From the IMG/VR virus record IMGVR_UViG_3300010296_000059, positions 1 through 27,480 of that record: DNA of 27,480 nt, one strand, 5' to 3'. Below, in pieces: positions 191 to 27,480 of this stretch. The position numbers were made by a program, and so were the translations under genes. Position 1 is the stretch's first letter. Each line of letters begins with the position of its first letter. Under the pieces are notes generated by a model. That model had not been told where the DNA came from, did not search any database, and worked only from the letters and a program-made list of their open reading frames with translations. The DNA comes from a virus.

Positions 191-616
191 TCAATGTTCT
201 TGTAGGTATTCTATCATACTTTGGAGGATTTGGGTATTGTCTCCTACCAGCCCCAGTGCACGATTGCAACTATGACAGAGAAGTCCTCTAACATCACCCG
301 TATCATGACAATGATCTACTGCAAATACATCAGCACCACCACCTCTACCAGATTTTCTACCTTTGGTTTCAGTGGTTCCACAGATAGCACATTTGCCATT
401 CTGTTTTTCTAACATTTCATTATACTCATTCAGTGTAATACCATAACACCTTTTTAAATTTTCATTTCTTTTTTTCAGTGGGTCATAATTTTCTTGTTGT
501 TTTTTTACATAACATTCTTTACATTTTCCATGATACCCATATGCAACTCCATTTCTTTTAGTTTCGTAAAATTCATTAAGTGATTTTTCTTTTTTACATA
601 TCTTACAAGTTTTCAT
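191..616 (-). CDS. Endonuclease VII-like HNH nuclease, probable free-standing homing endonuclease
   Basis: 141 aa. The C-terminal half carries the recombination endonuclease VII signature: a zinc-binding CxxC at C76/C79, the catalytic D101-H102-C-H104 stretch, a second CxxC at C114/C117 and N118 right after it. This spacing parallels T4 gp49 (Zn Cys 23/26/58/61; D40, H41, H43, N62). An extra N-terminal zinc knuckle (C4/C7 with C32/C35) probably binds DNA. The gene sits just downstream of an intron-free psbA but is separated from it by a terminator and has its own late promoter. Known precedent: the free-standing homing endonuclease F-CphI, encoded beside psbA in cyanophage S-PM2, cuts intronless psbA. 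Inference: this is a psbA-linked selfish nuclease. It could instead be a phage resolvase, but the extra zinc knuckle and location favour a mobile element. Nuclease family is confident; homing role is moderate. Confidence 0.9.
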   Translation of the reverse strand: MKTCKICKKEKSLNEFYETKRNGVAYGYHGKCKECYVKKQQENYDPLKKRNENLKRCYGITLNEYNEMLEKQNGKCAICGTTETKGRKSGRGGGADVFAVDHCHDTGDVRGLLCHSCNRALGLVGDNTQILQSMIEYLQEH

Positions 617-1805: not shown

Positions 1806-1907
1806 TAAGACCATCAGGGACATGGTGGAGTTACTATTTCCCAAGACCCCTCGCCTTGGGATATGAGAGACGGATTGTTGACCCTGCCTAGTCTCGGTAG
1901 CGGCAGG
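1806..1907 (-). promoter_or_regulatory. Structured psbA leader, candidate PhotoRC-II-type RNA
   Basis: The roughly 160-nt 5' leader of psbA is unusually hairpin-rich. In minus-strand order there is a 6-bp stem pairing 1902-1907 with 1883-1888, a 6-bp stem pairing 1855-1860 with 1840-1845, and a 5-bp stem pairing 1822-1826 with 1810-1814. The loop of the first hairpin (GAGAC at 1891-1895 on the minus strand) can pair with GTCTC at 1867-1871, suggesting a small pseudoknot. PhotoRC-I and PhotoRC-II are named conserved RNA motifs found upstream of psbA in marine cyanobacteria and phages; this is a good positional candidate, but I have not matched it to a covariance model. Confidence 0.55.
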
Positions 1908-1955
1908 AGTTTGTAACAAAAACCTTAAGGAATTGTCACATTTGTTTACCTATTT

Positions 1956-23090: not shown

Positions 23091-25880
23091 CTATTGAACT
23101 ACAGAGACTACTCCTTTTGCAATAACAAAATTTTGCCTTACTTGTAAATACCCACCACCAATTGTTGGTTGCAATGGATTAGCACTAACACTAATAAGTC
23201 CACTACCTGGATTTAACGTTCCATCAGATAATTCTATGTATGGAATCAAAGATATTTTGAACTCTGGGGATGCAACTTTACTTTCAATTCTCCAAACTTC
23301 TGTTGATGGGTTTGGACTATAATCATGAGATACCAGTTTTATGTAATCACCAACTGCTAAAGAATTATATACTGCTTCATTAGTAATATTAACATCATAA
23401 GTATTAGGATTATTTCCAGATGCTATTCCTGTCCCAACAACGTTATTGATATCACTTCCTAACGTAATATAATCAATACCAACAATTCTATAAACAAGAT
23501 AATTACTAGGTGTAGTTGTTGGGATATTATTAGTTTGATCTATAGGTAATTTAAATCTTATTTGACCTAAAGTTTTATCATCTAATGGATTTAGATTAGC
23601 ATCAAGTGGATTGAATTCTTGAAATTTTACCGCAGTAAGTTGGTTGTTAAAATCAACAGTCTCTACTCCATTAGAAACAGTAGCATTATATATTTCAAAG
23701 TTTACTACAGTATCAGTAAGATCTTTTGATTCTCCATTTTGTTGATATTGATAAACTGGTGTTTGAGTTTCTATTCCTGGAGTTACAGAAATATTAACAC
23801 CATCATAATCACTATCATACAGATCGGGAACTGGAATAAATTCGTCTGCAGGTCCAAGAACAATGTTATCAATAACATCAGTATTTACAGATCCATAAAT
23901 TCTAATACCAGTTCCACAATTTCTAACAACACAACCAGTCATTGAAATAACTTTTCCAGTAGTAAGATCTATTTCCCCTGGATAATTTTGGAAAGTAGTA
24001 TTGTTTATAGTAGTATTTTCAGTAGATGACATTAAAACACAAGGAGTTTCATATCTCTCTGTATCCATACCATCAATAAAATAAGAACCAAAGATAGAAA
24101 AATTCAATGATCCTTCTGCATAAATTGCTGGACCATATCCATTCCTAACTTTTACATTCTGCAATCTTACAAACTCACTATTAGGAAATGCCAATAGTGC
24201 ATTATTACTTTCAACTCCTAAATCACTAGACGGATATAAAATTTGATTCTCAGAATTTCCGTCAATTAACATGTCTCTTAAACTAAAATTTTTCAATCCC
24301 CATGTTTCTTGTGGTTGTGTAGCGTCATAATTTTCTCCAATAAACATAGCATTTTGCAATCCACTTAACTGAGACGAAGACAAGTTGCCAGTTGACCAGT
24401 ATTGCTTTGTAAACACTGTGCTGTCATCTAGTCCACGAAGAGTAAATGTGGTGGGAAGTTTAATTTGATCAATAAGATAAGTTCCACCTGGAACAATTAA
24501 AAACTTTGTGCCATCAGCATAAACAGCATCAATTGCATTTTGTAATGCACGAGTGTCATCATGATACAGATAAATTGTATATCCACTAGTATCTTGAATT
24601 AGTCCAGGAACATCAAGTGTTATTGTATTTGCCGTTCTATTAACTTCTCTTAAAGAGGCAAGTGTCCATCCTCTTTTTGGAGATGCTGGAGGTGTTAATG
24701 GAAAATGAACTGTATCATCTTTGTAACTACCATCAGCATTCTTTCTTGACCATGGAGAAATATCATATTCACAATAATCTTTAAATGATACTGTCAATCC
24801 ATTATCAAATTCTTTTGGTCCTAGTACATGAACTAATTTAAACTGAGGTTTGTTTGAACTATTAATAGCAATATTAGCTTCGTTGGCAGTATCAAACTCT
24901 GCTCTATAAACTAACAAACCATTTCCAGCATTTCTAGTAATGTTCAACAAATTATAGTTGCCTTCATTCATTTGATTTGAAGAAAGGTTTTCTACTGCAG
25001 TGTTGTACTGATTATAATCACTAATATCACCAGTGTCTAATCTAAATGATGCAAAAATATAAACATAAAAAGACTTTGGAATATTAACATTATTAAATAA
25101 AGCTTCTTCAGATATACCCTGAACTGTAGATCCTGTGGGAGCAACAGGCAACTCATTGACAGGTGTAGTAGTAGCACCAAATATTTTTACTTGTTGTAAA
25201 GTATTAAAACTGGAAACACTATTTAATTGTACTCTTAAATAAGTTTGCGAATTTTCATTGATAAATTGTGTCCCTAAAACTTCATATTGCGTTGCATCAC
25301 CAGAAGATCCATACTGATTGGCAACATCATATAAAGTTTCTGATGGTGTAATAAAATTATAAAAAACAACTCCATCATTTGTAAATTGCCACCTAGATTG
25401 AGTTGAATCCCATGTAATTTTTGCGTTCGTATTAGATCTCTCAAGAGAATCAGATGTTATTAATGATCCACTAGAAGTAACACTATTAAATGTAACGTTT
25501 GATGTTGTGCTAATATCTTGTACTAAACCTATATTGAGAGTATCGCCAGTTCTAGATAAATTAAAATTTGAATCTCCTAAAAAATTAATATCATCTGGTA
25601 CTGCGTTATTATCAGAAAGTCTAAGTGTTACAGAATTAGAAGTAGTACCATCTAATAATGATAGAAAATAATTATTGTTTAGATCAGTTGGATTGCCCCA
25701 GTTAACTCCAGTTGACGTTGATAGTAATACTTGTCCAGGTTCTCCTAAATCTCCATCTTTATCAGCAAGTGGTCCTAAAACTGATAAAGTTTTTGAAGTA
25801 TTAATCTGCAATCCTTCCAGGACTTCAACCTGTCCATCATTATCTAAATTAGTTAGTTGATTAGTCTTTACTAGGGACAT
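23091..25880 (-). CDS. Tail fibre with pectate-lyase-like beta-helix
   Basis: 929 aa. The N-terminus (about 46-62, LGEPGQVLLSTSTGVNWG) is a motif recurrent in cyanophage tail fibres, followed by SVTLRLSDNNAV and a NVTFNSVTSSG linker. About residues 435-680 resemble a right-handed beta-helix of the pectate-lyase-3 type: an opening DTRALQNAIDAVYADGTKFL then VPGGTYLIDQIKLP, followed by rung-like repeats (FSLRDMLIDGNSENQI, VRLQNVKVRNGYGPAIYAEG, TTINNTTFQNYPG, NCGTGIRIYGSVNTDVIDN). Such domains bind or cleave polysaccharide; I cannot identify catalytic residues, so cleavage is only possible. The C-terminus is beta-rich. It has its own late promoter (25915-25922) beside the tRNA. A receptor-binding or capsule-degrading fibre is inferred. 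Confidence 0.88.
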   Translation of the reverse strand: MSLVKTNQLTNLDNDGQVEVLEGLQINTSKTLSVLGPLADKDGDLGEPGQVLLSTSTGVNWGNPTDLNNNYFLSLLDGTTSNSVTLRLSDNNAVPDDINFLGDSNFNLSRTGDTLNIGLVQDISTTSNVTFNSVTSSGSLITSDSLERSNTNAKITWDSTQSRWQFTNDGVVFYNFITPSETLYDVANQYGSSGDATQYEVLGTQFINENSQTYLRVQLNSVSSFNTLQQVKIFGATTTPVNELPVAPTGSTVQGISEEALFNNVNIPKSFYVYIFASFRLDTGDISDYNQYNTAVENLSSNQMNEGNYNLLNITRNAGNGLLVYRAEFDTANEANIAINSSNKPQFKLVHVLGPKEFDNGLTVSFKDYCEYDISPWSRKNADGSYKDDTVHFPLTPPASPKRGWTLASLREVNRTANTITLDVPGLIQDTSGYTIYLYHDDTRALQNAIDAVYADGTKFLIVPGGTYLIDQIKLPTTFTLRGLDDSTVFTKQYWSTGNLSSSQLSGLQNAMFIGENYDATQPQETWGLKNFSLRDMLIDGNSENQILYPSSDLGVESNNALLAFPNSEFVRLQNVKVRNGYGPAIYAEGSLNFSIFGSYFIDGMDTERYETPCVLMSSTENTTINNTTFQNYPGEIDLTTGKVISMTGCVVRNCGTGIRIYGSVNTDVIDNIVLGPADEFIPVPDLYDSDYDGVNISVTPGIETQTPVYQYQQNGESKDLTDTVVNFEIYNATVSNGVETVDFNNQLTAVKFQEFNPLDANLNPLDDKTLGQIRFKLPIDQTNNIPTTTPSNYLVYRIVGIDYITLGSDINNVVGTGIASGNNPNTYDVNITNEAVYNSLAVGDYIKLVSHDYSPNPSTEVWRIESKVASPEFKISLIPYIELSDGTLNPGSGLISVSANPLQPTIGGGYLQVRQNFVIAKGVVSVVQ

Positions 25881-25914
25881 AGCTTCCCATCAAACCTATA
25901 ATTTTATTCTTTTG

Positions 25915-25922
25915 TATTTATA
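25915..25922 (-). promoter_or_regulatory. T4-type late promoter of the beta-helix fibre
   Basis: Minus strand TATAAATA, exact consensus, 34 nt before the ATG at 25880 and only 3 nt after the tRNA 3' end, so the T run after the tRNA runs straight into it. Confidence 0.75.
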
Positions 25923-25925
25923 AAA

Positions 25926-25997
25926 AGCGGGTGATCGGACTCGAACCGACGACATCTAACTTGGAAGGATAGCGTTCTACCACTGAACTACACCCGC
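25926..25997 (-). tRNA. tRNA-Gly (anticodon UCC)
   Basis: 72 nt. The acceptor stem is a perfect 7 bp (25991-25997 with 25927-25933), the D stem is GTTC/GAAC, the T arm is GTCGG-TTCGAGT-CCGAT, and the anticodon loop is CTTCCAA, so the anticodon is TCC. The anticodon stem CTATC/GTTAG contains one T-T mismatch. The 3' CCA is not encoded; the discriminator base is T. It would help read GGA/GGG codons, frequent in a low-GC phage compared with its host. Confidence 0.95.
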
Positions 25998-26251
25998 ATG
26001 TTTGGGAGGCGGTCAAACCTCCCGAGCACATGCACGCCACTTGTTTGTTTTAGTTGTAAACAAGAACCAACTCACACGTTTTGGGTCATTTGGCACCACC
26101 ACTTGCTTTTTGACTGGAAGCAAGAAACCAGGCGGGAGTATAAACCCCATCCGCACCAACTGCCCTTTGAAGAGAGGCAGTAAACTCTCGGGAGAAGGGG
26201 AACCTTCAAACCGACCAGAGCGAGTTTATAGTCATCTCGGGACTGAAGTAT
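25998..26251 (-). ncRNA. Hairpin-rich non-coding region, candidate structured RNA
   Basis: 254 nt without a convincing gene between the 78-aa gene and the tRNA. It is visibly richer in G+C than its surroundings (32 of 60 bases in 26161-26220). Stems: 26004-26009 with 26018-26023 (6 bp), 26040-26046 with 26058-26064 (7 bp), 26102-26108 with 26118-26124 (7 bp), 26132-26135 with 26151-26154, and 26159-26164 with 26176-26181 (6 bp). A longer pairing joins 26166-26172 with 26204-26210. The two 7-bp hairpins are imperfect copies of each other (ACTTG(T/C)TT ... CAAGAA.CCA). No tRNA fold fits. Strand is assumed from the flanking genes. It may be a processed leader of the tRNA transcript or an independent RNA. 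Confidence 0.4.
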
Positions 26252-26488
26252 TTAGTTGTATTTGCGATAGGCACCTACTTCAGGATCAGGATCTAACCAC
26301 TTAGTATACTCAGGATCTTCAAGGCAAGTATCTAGTTGCATTTGATTATCAAGGAAATACATGTCTGAATAACGCTTGGTCCAGTCGTTAAACTTTTGAA
26401 TGCGATAGTCAGGTTTACCATTGATCTCTAGAAGACCGCACTGGACATAGCGATAAGGAGAACGTTCAAGGATAACAACGGGTTTCAT
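26252..26488 (-). CDS. Small hypothetical protein at the end of the talC cassette
   Basis: 78 aa. The ATG at 26488 overlaps the stop of the Phd-like gene by 4 nt (ATGA). It begins MKPVVILERSPYRYVQCGLL, a beta-like strand and hairpin, followed by a helix-like, aromatic, acidic region (DYRIQKFNDWTKRYSDMYFL) and a C-terminal LEDPEYTKWLDPDPEVGAYR. It does not resemble Doc, RelE or YoeB toxins, so I do not call it the toxin partner of the Phd-like protein. Function unknown; real by coupling and composition. Confidence 0.8.
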   Translation of the reverse strand: MKPVVILERSPYRYVQCGLLEINGKPDYRIQKFNDWTKRYSDMYFLDNQMQLDTCLEDPEYTKWLDPDPEVGAYRKYN

Positions 26489-26688
26489 GATGCTTCTGAA
26501 TGATTGCTATACAAATTATACCACTCATCCTCTTCCACTTGCTCTATCAGATGTTCCAGTTGTTTAGCTGGCACAGCAACAACTGCTTTACCATCCTCTG
26601 TACGAATTAAAAACTCTTCACCTTCTTCAATAGCATCCATATACTTATCAAAATCTTTTTCAAATTGATCTGCAGTAATTTCAATCAT
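26485..26688 (-). CDS. Phd/YefM-like antitoxin-family protein
   Basis: 67 aa from the ATG at 26688, which overlaps the glutaredoxin stop by 4 nt (ATGA); a longer frame to 26739 would run deep into the glutaredoxin gene. The N-terminal two thirds (MIEITADQFEKDFDKYMDAI, then EEGEEFLIRTEDGKAVVAVP) follow the Phd/YefM pattern of beta strand, helix with KY, a G-E-x-hydrophobic-I strand and a GK-V-V-P hairpin. The C-terminus (EHLIEQVEEDEWYNLYSNHS) would be the toxin-contact tail in a true antitoxin. Phd proteins repress their own operon and neutralise Doc- or RelE-family toxins. No toxin is recognisable next to it, so it may be a stand-alone neutraliser or a regulator. Assignment from pattern only. 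Confidence 0.65.
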   Translation of the reverse strand: MIEITADQFEKDFDKYMDAIEEGEEFLIRTEDGKAVVAVPAKQLEHLIEQVEEDEWYNLYSNHSEAS

Positions 26689-26930
26689 GGCACACAACAA
26701 ATTTTGTTTTCTTGCATATAACGTATAGATTCTTGACAACCACCTAAATGTAAATCGTCAAGAACAATCTGTGGGAAAGTAGCACCTTCACCAAACTCAG
26801 CATAAAACTCTTTACGTGAAAAATCTTTATCTAGTTCATAAACTACATGCCGCAGTTCTTCATATTCTACTACAGATTTAAATTTTTCGCAATAAGGACA
26901 ACCTGGTTTAGAATAAATTGTAAATGTCAT
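26685..26930 (-). CDS. nrdC: Glutaredoxin
   Basis: 81 aa, the usual size of a single-domain glutaredoxin. The redox motif CPYC is at C11-C14, the cis-proline loop TFPQI at 51-55, and a GGCQES glutathione-contact segment at 63-68, with the expected beta-alpha-beta order. It is likely the NrdC-type reductant for the phage ribonucleotide reductase. A CC pair near the C-terminus (KICCVP) is an extra feature. The ATG overlaps the talC stop by 4 nt (ATGA), and its stop overlaps the next ATG the same way. Family is confident; partner is inferred. Confidence 0.95.
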   Translation of the reverse strand: MTFTIYSKPGCPYCEKFKSVVEYEELRHVVYELDKDFSRKEFYAEFGEGATFPQIVLDDLHLGGCQESIRYMQENKICCVP

Positions 26931-27480
26931 TGTATTTCTTTGAAGTCTTTGTTGAATATTTCAAGACCCTCACGGGTCAAAACATGATCATACATTTTAT
27001 CAAATACTGAACAAGGCAAAGTAACTACATCAGCACCATATAAAAGACTACGAGATACATGATGAACATCACGTAAACTAGCAGCAAGAACTTTAGTATT
27101 TACTTTTTGTACGCCATACAAACTACTAATAGCACGAATTAACTCAACACCACTGAAAGAATTGTCATTACAACGTCCAACAAATGGAGAAACATATGTG
27201 GCGCCTGCTAGTGCAGCCATAACTGCTTGAGCACCAGAGAAACAAAGAGTGACATTAGTAGTAACACCTTGACCTGTAAGGATTTTACATGCTATCAAAC
27301 CTTCTTTGGTGAGAGGAAGTTTGATCGTGATGTTAGAACCAATTTCAGTATATTGCCGAGCATTATTTAACATGTCTTCTGCTTTATCACCATCTACTTC
27401 AGCAGAGATGCTCTCAAAAGCAAAGTCATTTGCTAGAGTTTTGATAAACTCATAGTAATTACATCCTGCCTTGCGAACAA
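26927..27480 (-). CDS. talC: TalC-type transaldolase, N-terminus beyond the window
   Basis: The frame stays open upstream of the ATG at 27373 to the window edge (VRKAGCNYYEFIKTLANDFA ...), so the start lies outside and about 30 residues are missing. Hallmarks of the short TalC/fructose-6-phosphate aldolase-like family are SNITIKLPLTKEGL (Schiff-base lysine strand), GVTTNVTLCFSGAQAVMAAL and AGATYVSPFVGR, then VLAASLRDVHHV and GADVVTLP. The enzyme moves a dihydroxyacetone unit between fructose-6-phosphate and erythrose-4-phosphate in the non-oxidative pentose phosphate pathway. In cyanophages it is a recognised auxiliary metabolic gene that diverts host carbon to NADPH and nucleotides. It leads an overlapping cassette with glutaredoxin. 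Confidence 0.96.
   Translation of the reverse strand, partial: VRKAGCNYYEFIKTLANDFAFESISAEVDGDKAEDMLNNARQYTEIGSNITIKLPLTKEGLIACKILTGQGVTTNVTLCFSGAQAVMAALAGATYVSPFVGRCNDNSFSGVELIRAISSLYGVQKVNTKVLAASLRDVHHVSRSLLYGADVVTLPCSVFDKMYDHVLTREGLEIFNKDFKEIQ

What the first reader, a model, noticed from the sequence alone, without database searches (positions are those of the whole stretch)
25998..26251. GC-rich hairpin array beside tRNA-Gly
At least five stem-loops occur in 254 nt, two being imperfect copies about 61 nt apart, in a region without a gene. Two alternative pairings near 26000-26023 are mutually exclusive. It is not explained by the tRNA, the terminators or the late promoters.
Basis: seen in the sequence. 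Interest (0 to 1): 0.62.

Follow-up and report, generated by a model that had tools for sequence, protein, structure and literature searches.

The report
Cyanophage RNA with repeated pseudoknots
The hairpin cluster beside a viral tRNA gene is a longer form of a known but unexplained RNA (wcaG) of viruses that infect marine cyanobacteria; it consists of repeated small RNA knots, and its position suggests it is the tail end of a message rather than the start-of-message switch it was assumed to be.

Summary
The hairpins are real, but on the minus strand, and the core (26189-26088) is the known Rfam family wcaG (RF01761; 86.5 bits, gathering score 42). Rfam's model covers 102 of the 254 bases. P1 and P3 of wcaG, and the '61-nt copy' (26072-26035), are three related H-type pseudoknot modules; the third is not covered by the wcaG model. 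In 38 aligned phage sequences 96.4% of cells pair, 22 of 41 pairs show two-sided changes, and G-U cells outnumber A-C cells 129 to 4: minus-strand RNA. Context in 153 distinct loci argues against a 5' leader: the array ends a talC/glutaredoxin/Phd-like/phrog_481 gene block; the upstream stop codon lies inside a predicted module in 87 of 116 loci examined; single arrays are mostly followed by an intrinsic terminator whose U-run abuts a sigma-70-like -10 box; three-module arrays run into tRNA-Gly in 42 of 55. Best reading: a phage-borne 3'-terminal pseudoknot array whose 3' end is made by a terminator or, here, by tRNA processing. What it does (mRNA protection, stable RNA, decoy) is inferred. 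The 'mutually exclusive pairings' at 26000-26023 are not conserved. Verdict: new variant of a known kind.

The parts
26230..26244 (-). Module 0: stem-loop AGUC-CCGAGAU-GACU at the 5' end of the array, 8 nt after the stop codon of the 78-aa phrog_481 ORF
   Evidence: position; related AGTC/GACT stem-loops followed by ..CTGGT in 110 distinct forms among relatives (detector includes chance hits); a pseudoknot for this module was tested and not supported
26189..26213 (-). Hairpin CGG..GAAGG/CCUUC..CCG between module 0 and module A
   Evidence: sequence, position; same stretch in S-PM2
26159..26187 (-). Module A (P1 of wcaG): H-type pseudoknot, S1 GAG:CUC, S2 ACUGCCU:GGGCAGU
   Evidence: covariation helix 1 (100% of cells, 6 of 7 pairs with two-sided change); S1 of this module by permutation, 82 of 90 distinct against mean 63, max 72 of 1000
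26131..26154 (-). P2 hairpin of wcaG
   Evidence: nearly invariant, so no covariation support in A2
26097..26131 (-). Module B (P3 of wcaG): H-type pseudoknot, S1 CUGG:CCAG, S2 CUUGCUU:AAGCAAG-type stem, tail UGGUG
   Evidence: found by model R1 built from module C sequences, 25.2 bits, E 6.4e-5
26088..26189 (-). Rfam wcaG RNA (RF01761), model 1-98 of 98
   Evidence: 86.5 bits, gathering score 42
26073..26097 (-). Linker between modules B and C
   Evidence: alignment
26035..26072 (-). Module C: third H-type pseudoknot, S1 AGUUG:CAACU, S2 CUUGUUU:AAACAAG, tail UGGCG; outside the Rfam match
   Evidence: 33 distinct sequences, 91.4% of cells paired, 9 of 12 pairs with two-sided change
26004..26023 (-). 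3' hairpin GGGAGG-UUUGACCG-CCUCCC without U-run; terminator position in relatives
   Evidence: helix 7; U-run present or absent in relatives
25926..25997 (-). tRNA-Gly (anticodon TCC), starts 6 nt after the 3' hairpin; likely 3' end former by RNase P (inferred)
26252..26488 (-). 78-aa ORF of phrog_481, unknown function, directly upstream on the same strand
26485..26739 (-). Phd-like antitoxin ORF (phrog_375, PF02604)
26685..26930 (-). glutaredoxin ORF (PF00462)
26927..27478 (-). transaldolase ORF, cut by the window end (PF00923, phrog_440)

Best explanation
The region is an extended wcaG RNA of a T4-like cyanophage, read from the minus strand: a chain of related ~53-nt modules (one stem-loop module, then three H-type pseudoknots, with hairpins between some of them) that begins just after the stop codon of the phrog_481 gene. 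It is most likely the structured 3' end of the talC/glutaredoxin/Phd-like/phrog_481 transcript, not the 5' leader of the next gene. In relatives with fewer modules the 3' end is made by an intrinsic terminator; in this window the terminator hairpin has no U-run and the RNA runs into tRNA-Gly, so RNase P would cut the array off as a separate 3' end. The stack of pseudoknots would then protect the upstream message, or the cut-off RNA itself, against 3'-to-5' decay, and may act as a stable phage RNA. Shown: family membership of the core, three homologous pseudoknots, strand, gene context. Inferred: co-transcription, RNase P release, protection or any function.
For: Core is RF01761. Covariation for all but the P2 helix, pseudoknot S1 stems by permutation, G-U 129 to A-C 4. 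Model R1, built from 33 module-C sequences, finds module B in the window (25.2 bits, E 6.4e-5) and A and B in relatives that lack C (best E 1.4e-5 over 741,860 bases), so modules are repeats. Window-operon genes lie upstream on the same strand in 75 of 87 distinct single loci and 43 of 53 distinct double loci with at least 600 nt upstream, and in none within 2.5 kb downstream. Upstream stop codon inside a predicted module in 87 of 116 distinct loci examined, module within 22 nt in 15 more, against 22 and 26 of 1757 other stop codons. After single arrays: terminator in 76 of 89, and in 67 of 77 with a U-run a TATAAT-like box directly after it, with TTGCAT, TTTACA or TTGACA 17 nt upstream in 56 of the 67: the next gene has its own promoter downstream of the array. 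tRNA-Gly follows 42 of 55 distinct double arrays at a fixed 33-39 nt. Terminator arms show no special complementarity to their own array (75 of 76 against a mean of 72.4 with swapped arrays), against an attenuator.
Against: No transcript data were seen. Downstream genes are on the same strand in 99 of 101 single and 76 of 78 double loci that have one, so a leader read by run-through is not excluded by orientation. Relatives share ancestry, so context counts are not independent. The upstream ORF was chosen by length and the module detector fires by design in the array. Promoter motif matches are not starts shown by experiment. 13 of 89 single loci had no terminator by my scan. Minus-strand folding energy is ordinary.
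Confidence: 0.5

Rival explanations
1. wcaG is a cis-regulatory leader or riboswitch of the downstream gene, as Weinberg and colleagues and Rfam class it; in the window it would control tRNA-Gly or the tail-fibre-like gene.
For: Rfam type Cis-reg. Weinberg 2010 (PMC2864571, passages read) rates wcaG 'y' as riboswitch and notes EPS and high-light genes downstream. Compact pseudoknots are typical of small riboswitches (recalled). A terminator follows most single arrays, as in attenuating riboswitches. RNAalifold also offers an invariant competing helix, GCGGAUGGG with CCC..UCCGU.
Against: The same paper says 5' UTR location is assumed when a motif lies upstream of coding regions. A sigma-70-like promoter lies after the terminator (67 of 77); no antiterminator signal; upstream genes are the conserved side; in the window the next feature is a tRNA. 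The competing helix is broken in the window (AAAACG in place of CUUCCG).
Confidence: 0.2
2. The array is a separate stable non-coding RNA or protein-binding decoy with repeated binding sites, acting in trans on the host.
For: Repeated modules with conserved UUUC, AAA and UGGYG signature; both 3' contexts would yield a discrete 3' end; module C also occurs in loci without a full wcaG core, and two of them (L125, L136) give no Rfam wcaG match.
Against: No promoter of its own is apparent; in the window only 7 nt separate the upstream stop codon from module 0. No binding partner was sought or found.
Confidence: 0.2
3. The array is mainly a DNA-level recombination or gene-shuffling site of the variable region, kept because repeats promote exchange of gene cassettes.
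For: Different genes end in the array and different genes follow it; in S-RIM32 an endonuclease gene lies between array and tRNA-Gly.
Against: Compensatory changes with G-U on one strand only show selection on RNA.
Confidence: 0.07

Closest known systems
wcaG RNA (Rfam RF01761; Weinberg et al. 2010)
   Same: The core of the array is a clear member by covariance model; same hosts (marine T4-like cyanophages).
   Different: The window has a third pseudoknot and a 5' stem-loop module outside the model, lies before a tRNA and not an exopolysaccharide or high-light gene, and context points to a 3' end. I have not seen the published figure or supplement, so I cannot say whether the A and B pseudoknots were drawn there.
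STAXI motif (RF01728)
   Same: Pseudoknot repeated two or three times in tandem (PMC2864571, passage read).
   Different: Enterobacteria; UUCG tetraloops; no STAXI match in the window at E up to 10.
[quoted passage not shown]
   Same: Three consecutive pseudoknots followed by a tRNA-shaped 3' element (PMC4683447, passages read).
   Different: RNA virus 3' end, tRNA mimic and not a tRNA gene; no homology tested or claimed.
PhotoRC-II, manA and glnA RNAs of cyanophages
   Same: Structured RNA families in the same phages.
   Different: Different families; PhotoRC-II is present elsewhere in this window.

Membership tests
wcaG RNA RF01761 | covariance-model score over the gathering score | tested here: met
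   86.5 bits against 42
wcaG RNA RF01761 | three stems P1, P2, P3 of the model | tested here: met
   alignment; covariation for P1 and P3, P2 invariant
wcaG RNA RF01761 | marine cyanophage distribution | tested here: met
   81 phage records, all named Synechococcus phage, Cyanophage or Prochlorococcus phage; of 3 matches in bacterial genome contigs one has the array and also carries phrog_481 and Phd-like homologues, two are GC-rich chance matches
wcaG RNA RF01761 | possible 5' UTR of exopolysaccharide or high-light genes | tested here: not met
   in the window tRNA-Gly and a tail-fibre-like ORF follow; not a requirement of the Rfam model
wcaG RNA RF01761 | ligand-dependent gene control (riboswitch) | not testable with these tools
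   needs in-line probing or reporter assays
STAXI RF01728 | match to the STAXI model | tested here: not met
   no match at E up to 10 in 25880-26500
STAXI RF01728 | tandem repeated pseudoknot | tested here: met
intrinsic terminator (3' hairpin 26004-26023) | G+C-rich hairpin followed by a U-run | tested here: not met
   hairpin present, followed by AAACAU and the tRNA
TMV upstream pseudoknot domain with tRNA-like structure | consecutive pseudoknots directly before a tRNA-shaped element | tested here: met
   architecture only: modules A-C then tRNA-Gly; homology not tested

The most novel reading that the evidence does not exclude
wcaG RNA as a whole has been read from the wrong end: it is not a 5' riboswitch but a phage-specific, modular 3'-terminal pseudoknot array, embedded in the stop codon region of the upstream message and cut free either by a terminator or by tRNA processing, a DNA-phage counterpart in design of the tobamovirus pseudoknot domain plus tRNA-like end.
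Probability: 0.35. Interest if true: 0.75.

Novelty: new variant of a known kind. Interest (0 to 1): 0.5.

Why it matters
wcaG has had no tested function since 2010, and papers on new cyanophages repeat the assumed role (control of exopolysaccharide or high-light genes in cis; passages read in PMC9964418, PMC10665884, PMC9602691, PMC12197685). If the array is a 3' end element, those annotations point at the wrong gene. The search for a ligand would give way to tests of RNA stability, end mapping and binding partners, which can be done with existing phages such as S-PM2 and with deposited RNA-seq reads.

Tried and rejected
Late promoter: TATAAA in module 0 of the window is TAAAAA in S-RSM4 and S-H9-1, so it is not conserved as a promoter. 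Coding: the plus-strand ORFs are antisense to the RNA and not pursued. AniS, ar15, Vault and other weak Rfam matches are far below their gathering scores and taken as chance. A pseudoknot in the stem-loop type modules (module 0 type) was tested and failed: 89 of 110 against a swapped mean of 86.8. An antiterminator between array and terminator was tested and failed. The alternative pairing at 26000-26023 is not conserved. Literature: (five wcaG RNA terms) listed 3 papers and (wcaG, riboswitch, orphan riboswitch, pseudoknot; at least 3 of 4) listed none with the word wcaG among the 10 shown of 26; searches gave no report of a third module or a 3' location in what I saw. Supplements were not open to me and the Syn9 transcriptome paper is not held.

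Rows dropped before counts: L201 (the window's own copy), L192 and L193 (chance matches), 13 of 207 loci without a core by my regular expression, duplicates by core plus 80 nt downstream (194 to 153; 95 single, 58 double), loci with short flanks as stated at each count, and L034 left out of the 39-sequence composite alignment by oversight of mine or as a truncated duplicate of L022 type; the window row was added by hand because my pattern missed it. One L115 chance hit was left out of A1. L114 and L006 carry a second pseudoknot after wcaG but are counted as single by the regular expression used.

Full report
What is there. On the minus strand, 5' to 3', the finding reads: stop codon of a 78-aa ORF (26252), a stem-loop (26244-26230), a hairpin (26213-26189), pseudoknot A (26187-26159), hairpin P2 (26154-26131), pseudoknot B (26131-26097), a linker, pseudoknot C (26072-26035), a 3' hairpin (26023-26004) and tRNA-Gly (25997-25926). 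Rfam's wcaG model matches 26189-26088 with 86.5 bits (gathering score 42) and nothing else in the region reaches a gathering score except the tRNA.

Structure and strand. For module C, 33 distinct sequences pair in 91.4% of cells, with two-sided changes in 9 of 12 pairs and 0 of 500 shuffles as high in covariation score; a pseudoknot can be drawn in 33 of 33, and 26 of 3300 shuffled sequences score as high. For the stretch from module A to the 3' hairpin, 38 sequences pair in 96.4% of cells, 22 of 41 pairs show two-sided changes, against 42-59% and at most 5 pairs when partners are slid. P2 is nearly invariant and has no covariation support of its own. The first stems of pseudoknots A and B were tested by swapping loops: A 82 of 90 distinct (mean 63, maximum 72 in 1000 swaps), B 45 of 45 with four bases (mean 32, maximum 38); only sequences that my parser could read entered (90 and 45 distinct from 194 rows). 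G-U cells number 129 and A-C cells 4, so the minus strand is the RNA. Folding energy does not help: z -0.43 for the minus strand and -2.21 for the plus strand.

Modules are repeats. A covariance model of module C (R1) finds module B in the window (25.2 bits, E 6.4e-5) besides C itself (46.3 bits; the window's C was among the model's sequences), and finds modules in 86 loci chosen as lacking C (best E 1.4e-5; for instance L079 at both sides of its core; L071, L082, L041, L018 and L100 at three places about 50 nt apart). I did not assign all 195 listed matches one by one. My own detector found 280 modules in 138 distinct loci against 24 after block shuffling, mostly 45-60 nt apart. So wcaG, in these phages, is a chain of modules of which Rfam models two. 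In L125 and L136, which keep module C but no core, Rfam finds no wcaG.

Context. 194 of 207 loci had a core by my pattern; 153 were distinct (95 without, 58 with module C). The four window genes upstream of the array (transaldolase, glutaredoxin, Phd-like antitoxin, phrog_481) have at least one homologue upstream on the same strand in 75 of 87 and 43 of 53 distinct loci with 600 nt of upstream sequence, and none downstream within 2.5 kb. The upstream stop codon lies in a predicted module in 87 of 116 distinct loci examined and within 22 nt before one in 15 more; for other stop codons in the same loci the counts are 22 and 26 of 1757. In several loci the last codons of phrog_481 or of a small membrane-protein-like ORF are the first module. 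Named phages show the same order: S-H9-1, S-RSM4, S-CAM4 and others.

What follows the array. In loci without module C an intrinsic terminator follows in 76 of 89; in 67 of 77 with a U-run a TATAAT-like hexamer starts mostly 1-2 nt after it and TTGCAT (34), TTTACA (12) or TTGACA (10) lies 17 nt upstream of that; other U-runs in these loci show this in 3 of 30. An earlier, stricter promoter scan found 35 of 89, with 29 of 89 in reversed sequence; it failed because TTGCAT was not accepted, and I tell it because taken alone it was not above control. With module C, tRNA-Gly(TCC) follows in 42 of 55 distinct loci at 33-39 nt, and a terminator-like hairpin was found in 28 of 56. Terminator arms show no more complementarity to their own array than to others.

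Reading. These facts fit a 3'-terminal element of the upstream transcription unit better than a 5' leader. The original paper states that 5' UTR location is assumed for motifs upstream of coding regions (PMC2864571, passages). For the window I infer co-transcription with the phrog_481 operon, run-through into tRNA-Gly and release by RNase P. What the stack of pseudoknots does is not shown; protection from 3' exonucleases and a role as stable RNA are the simplest proposals. The tobamovirus pseudoknot domain before a tRNA-like structure (PMC4683447, passages) is a parallel in design, not a relative. STAXI is the nearest bacterial parallel.

Novelty. wcaG is known; later phage papers only list it. 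In the searches named in Tried and rejected I found no report of the third module, of repeated modules in wcaG or of a 3' location; the paper's figure and supplement were not seen, so the A and B pseudoknots may have been drawn there.

Noticed in passing
window 1826-1921 minus, upstream of ORF 706-1788 minus: PhotoRC-II RNA (RF01717, 58.9 bits) before an ORF that I read as psbA (recalled, not searched).
   Followed up: no
window 191-616 minus: ORF with Pfam Endonuclease_7 (PF02945) directly after the psbA-like ORF, reminiscent of the homing endonuclease beside psbA in S-PM2 (passage in PMC12197685).
   Followed up: no
L001-L120, directly after the wcaG array: Terminator hairpin and sigma-70-like promoter overlap: the -35-like hexamer is in the hairpin and the -10 follows the U-run, 17-nt spacing. 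It may be a general device of these phages.
   Followed up: partly
L206 3584-4150 (S-RIM32): An endonuclease gene lies between the array and tRNA-Gly; in S-RIM32 the annotated reading frame overlaps the array.
   Followed up: no
alignment A2 columns 44-52 with 120-128: Invariant competing helix GCGGAUGGG with CCC..UCCGU, kept in most rows but broken in the window; a possible conformational switch, without covariation for or against.
   Followed up: partly
L208 (bacterial MAG contig NZVE01000057.1): Rhodobacteraceae MAG contig with wcaG also encodes phrog_481 and Phd-like homologues: probably a cyanophage contig binned with a bacterium.
   Followed up: partly
phrog_481 and small membrane-protein-like ORFs upstream of the array in L001-L120: C-terminal residues such as EDTDGL, DSVSSQN and LVSQN are encoded by the first module of the RNA, so RNA structure and protein end share sequence.
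   Followed up: partly
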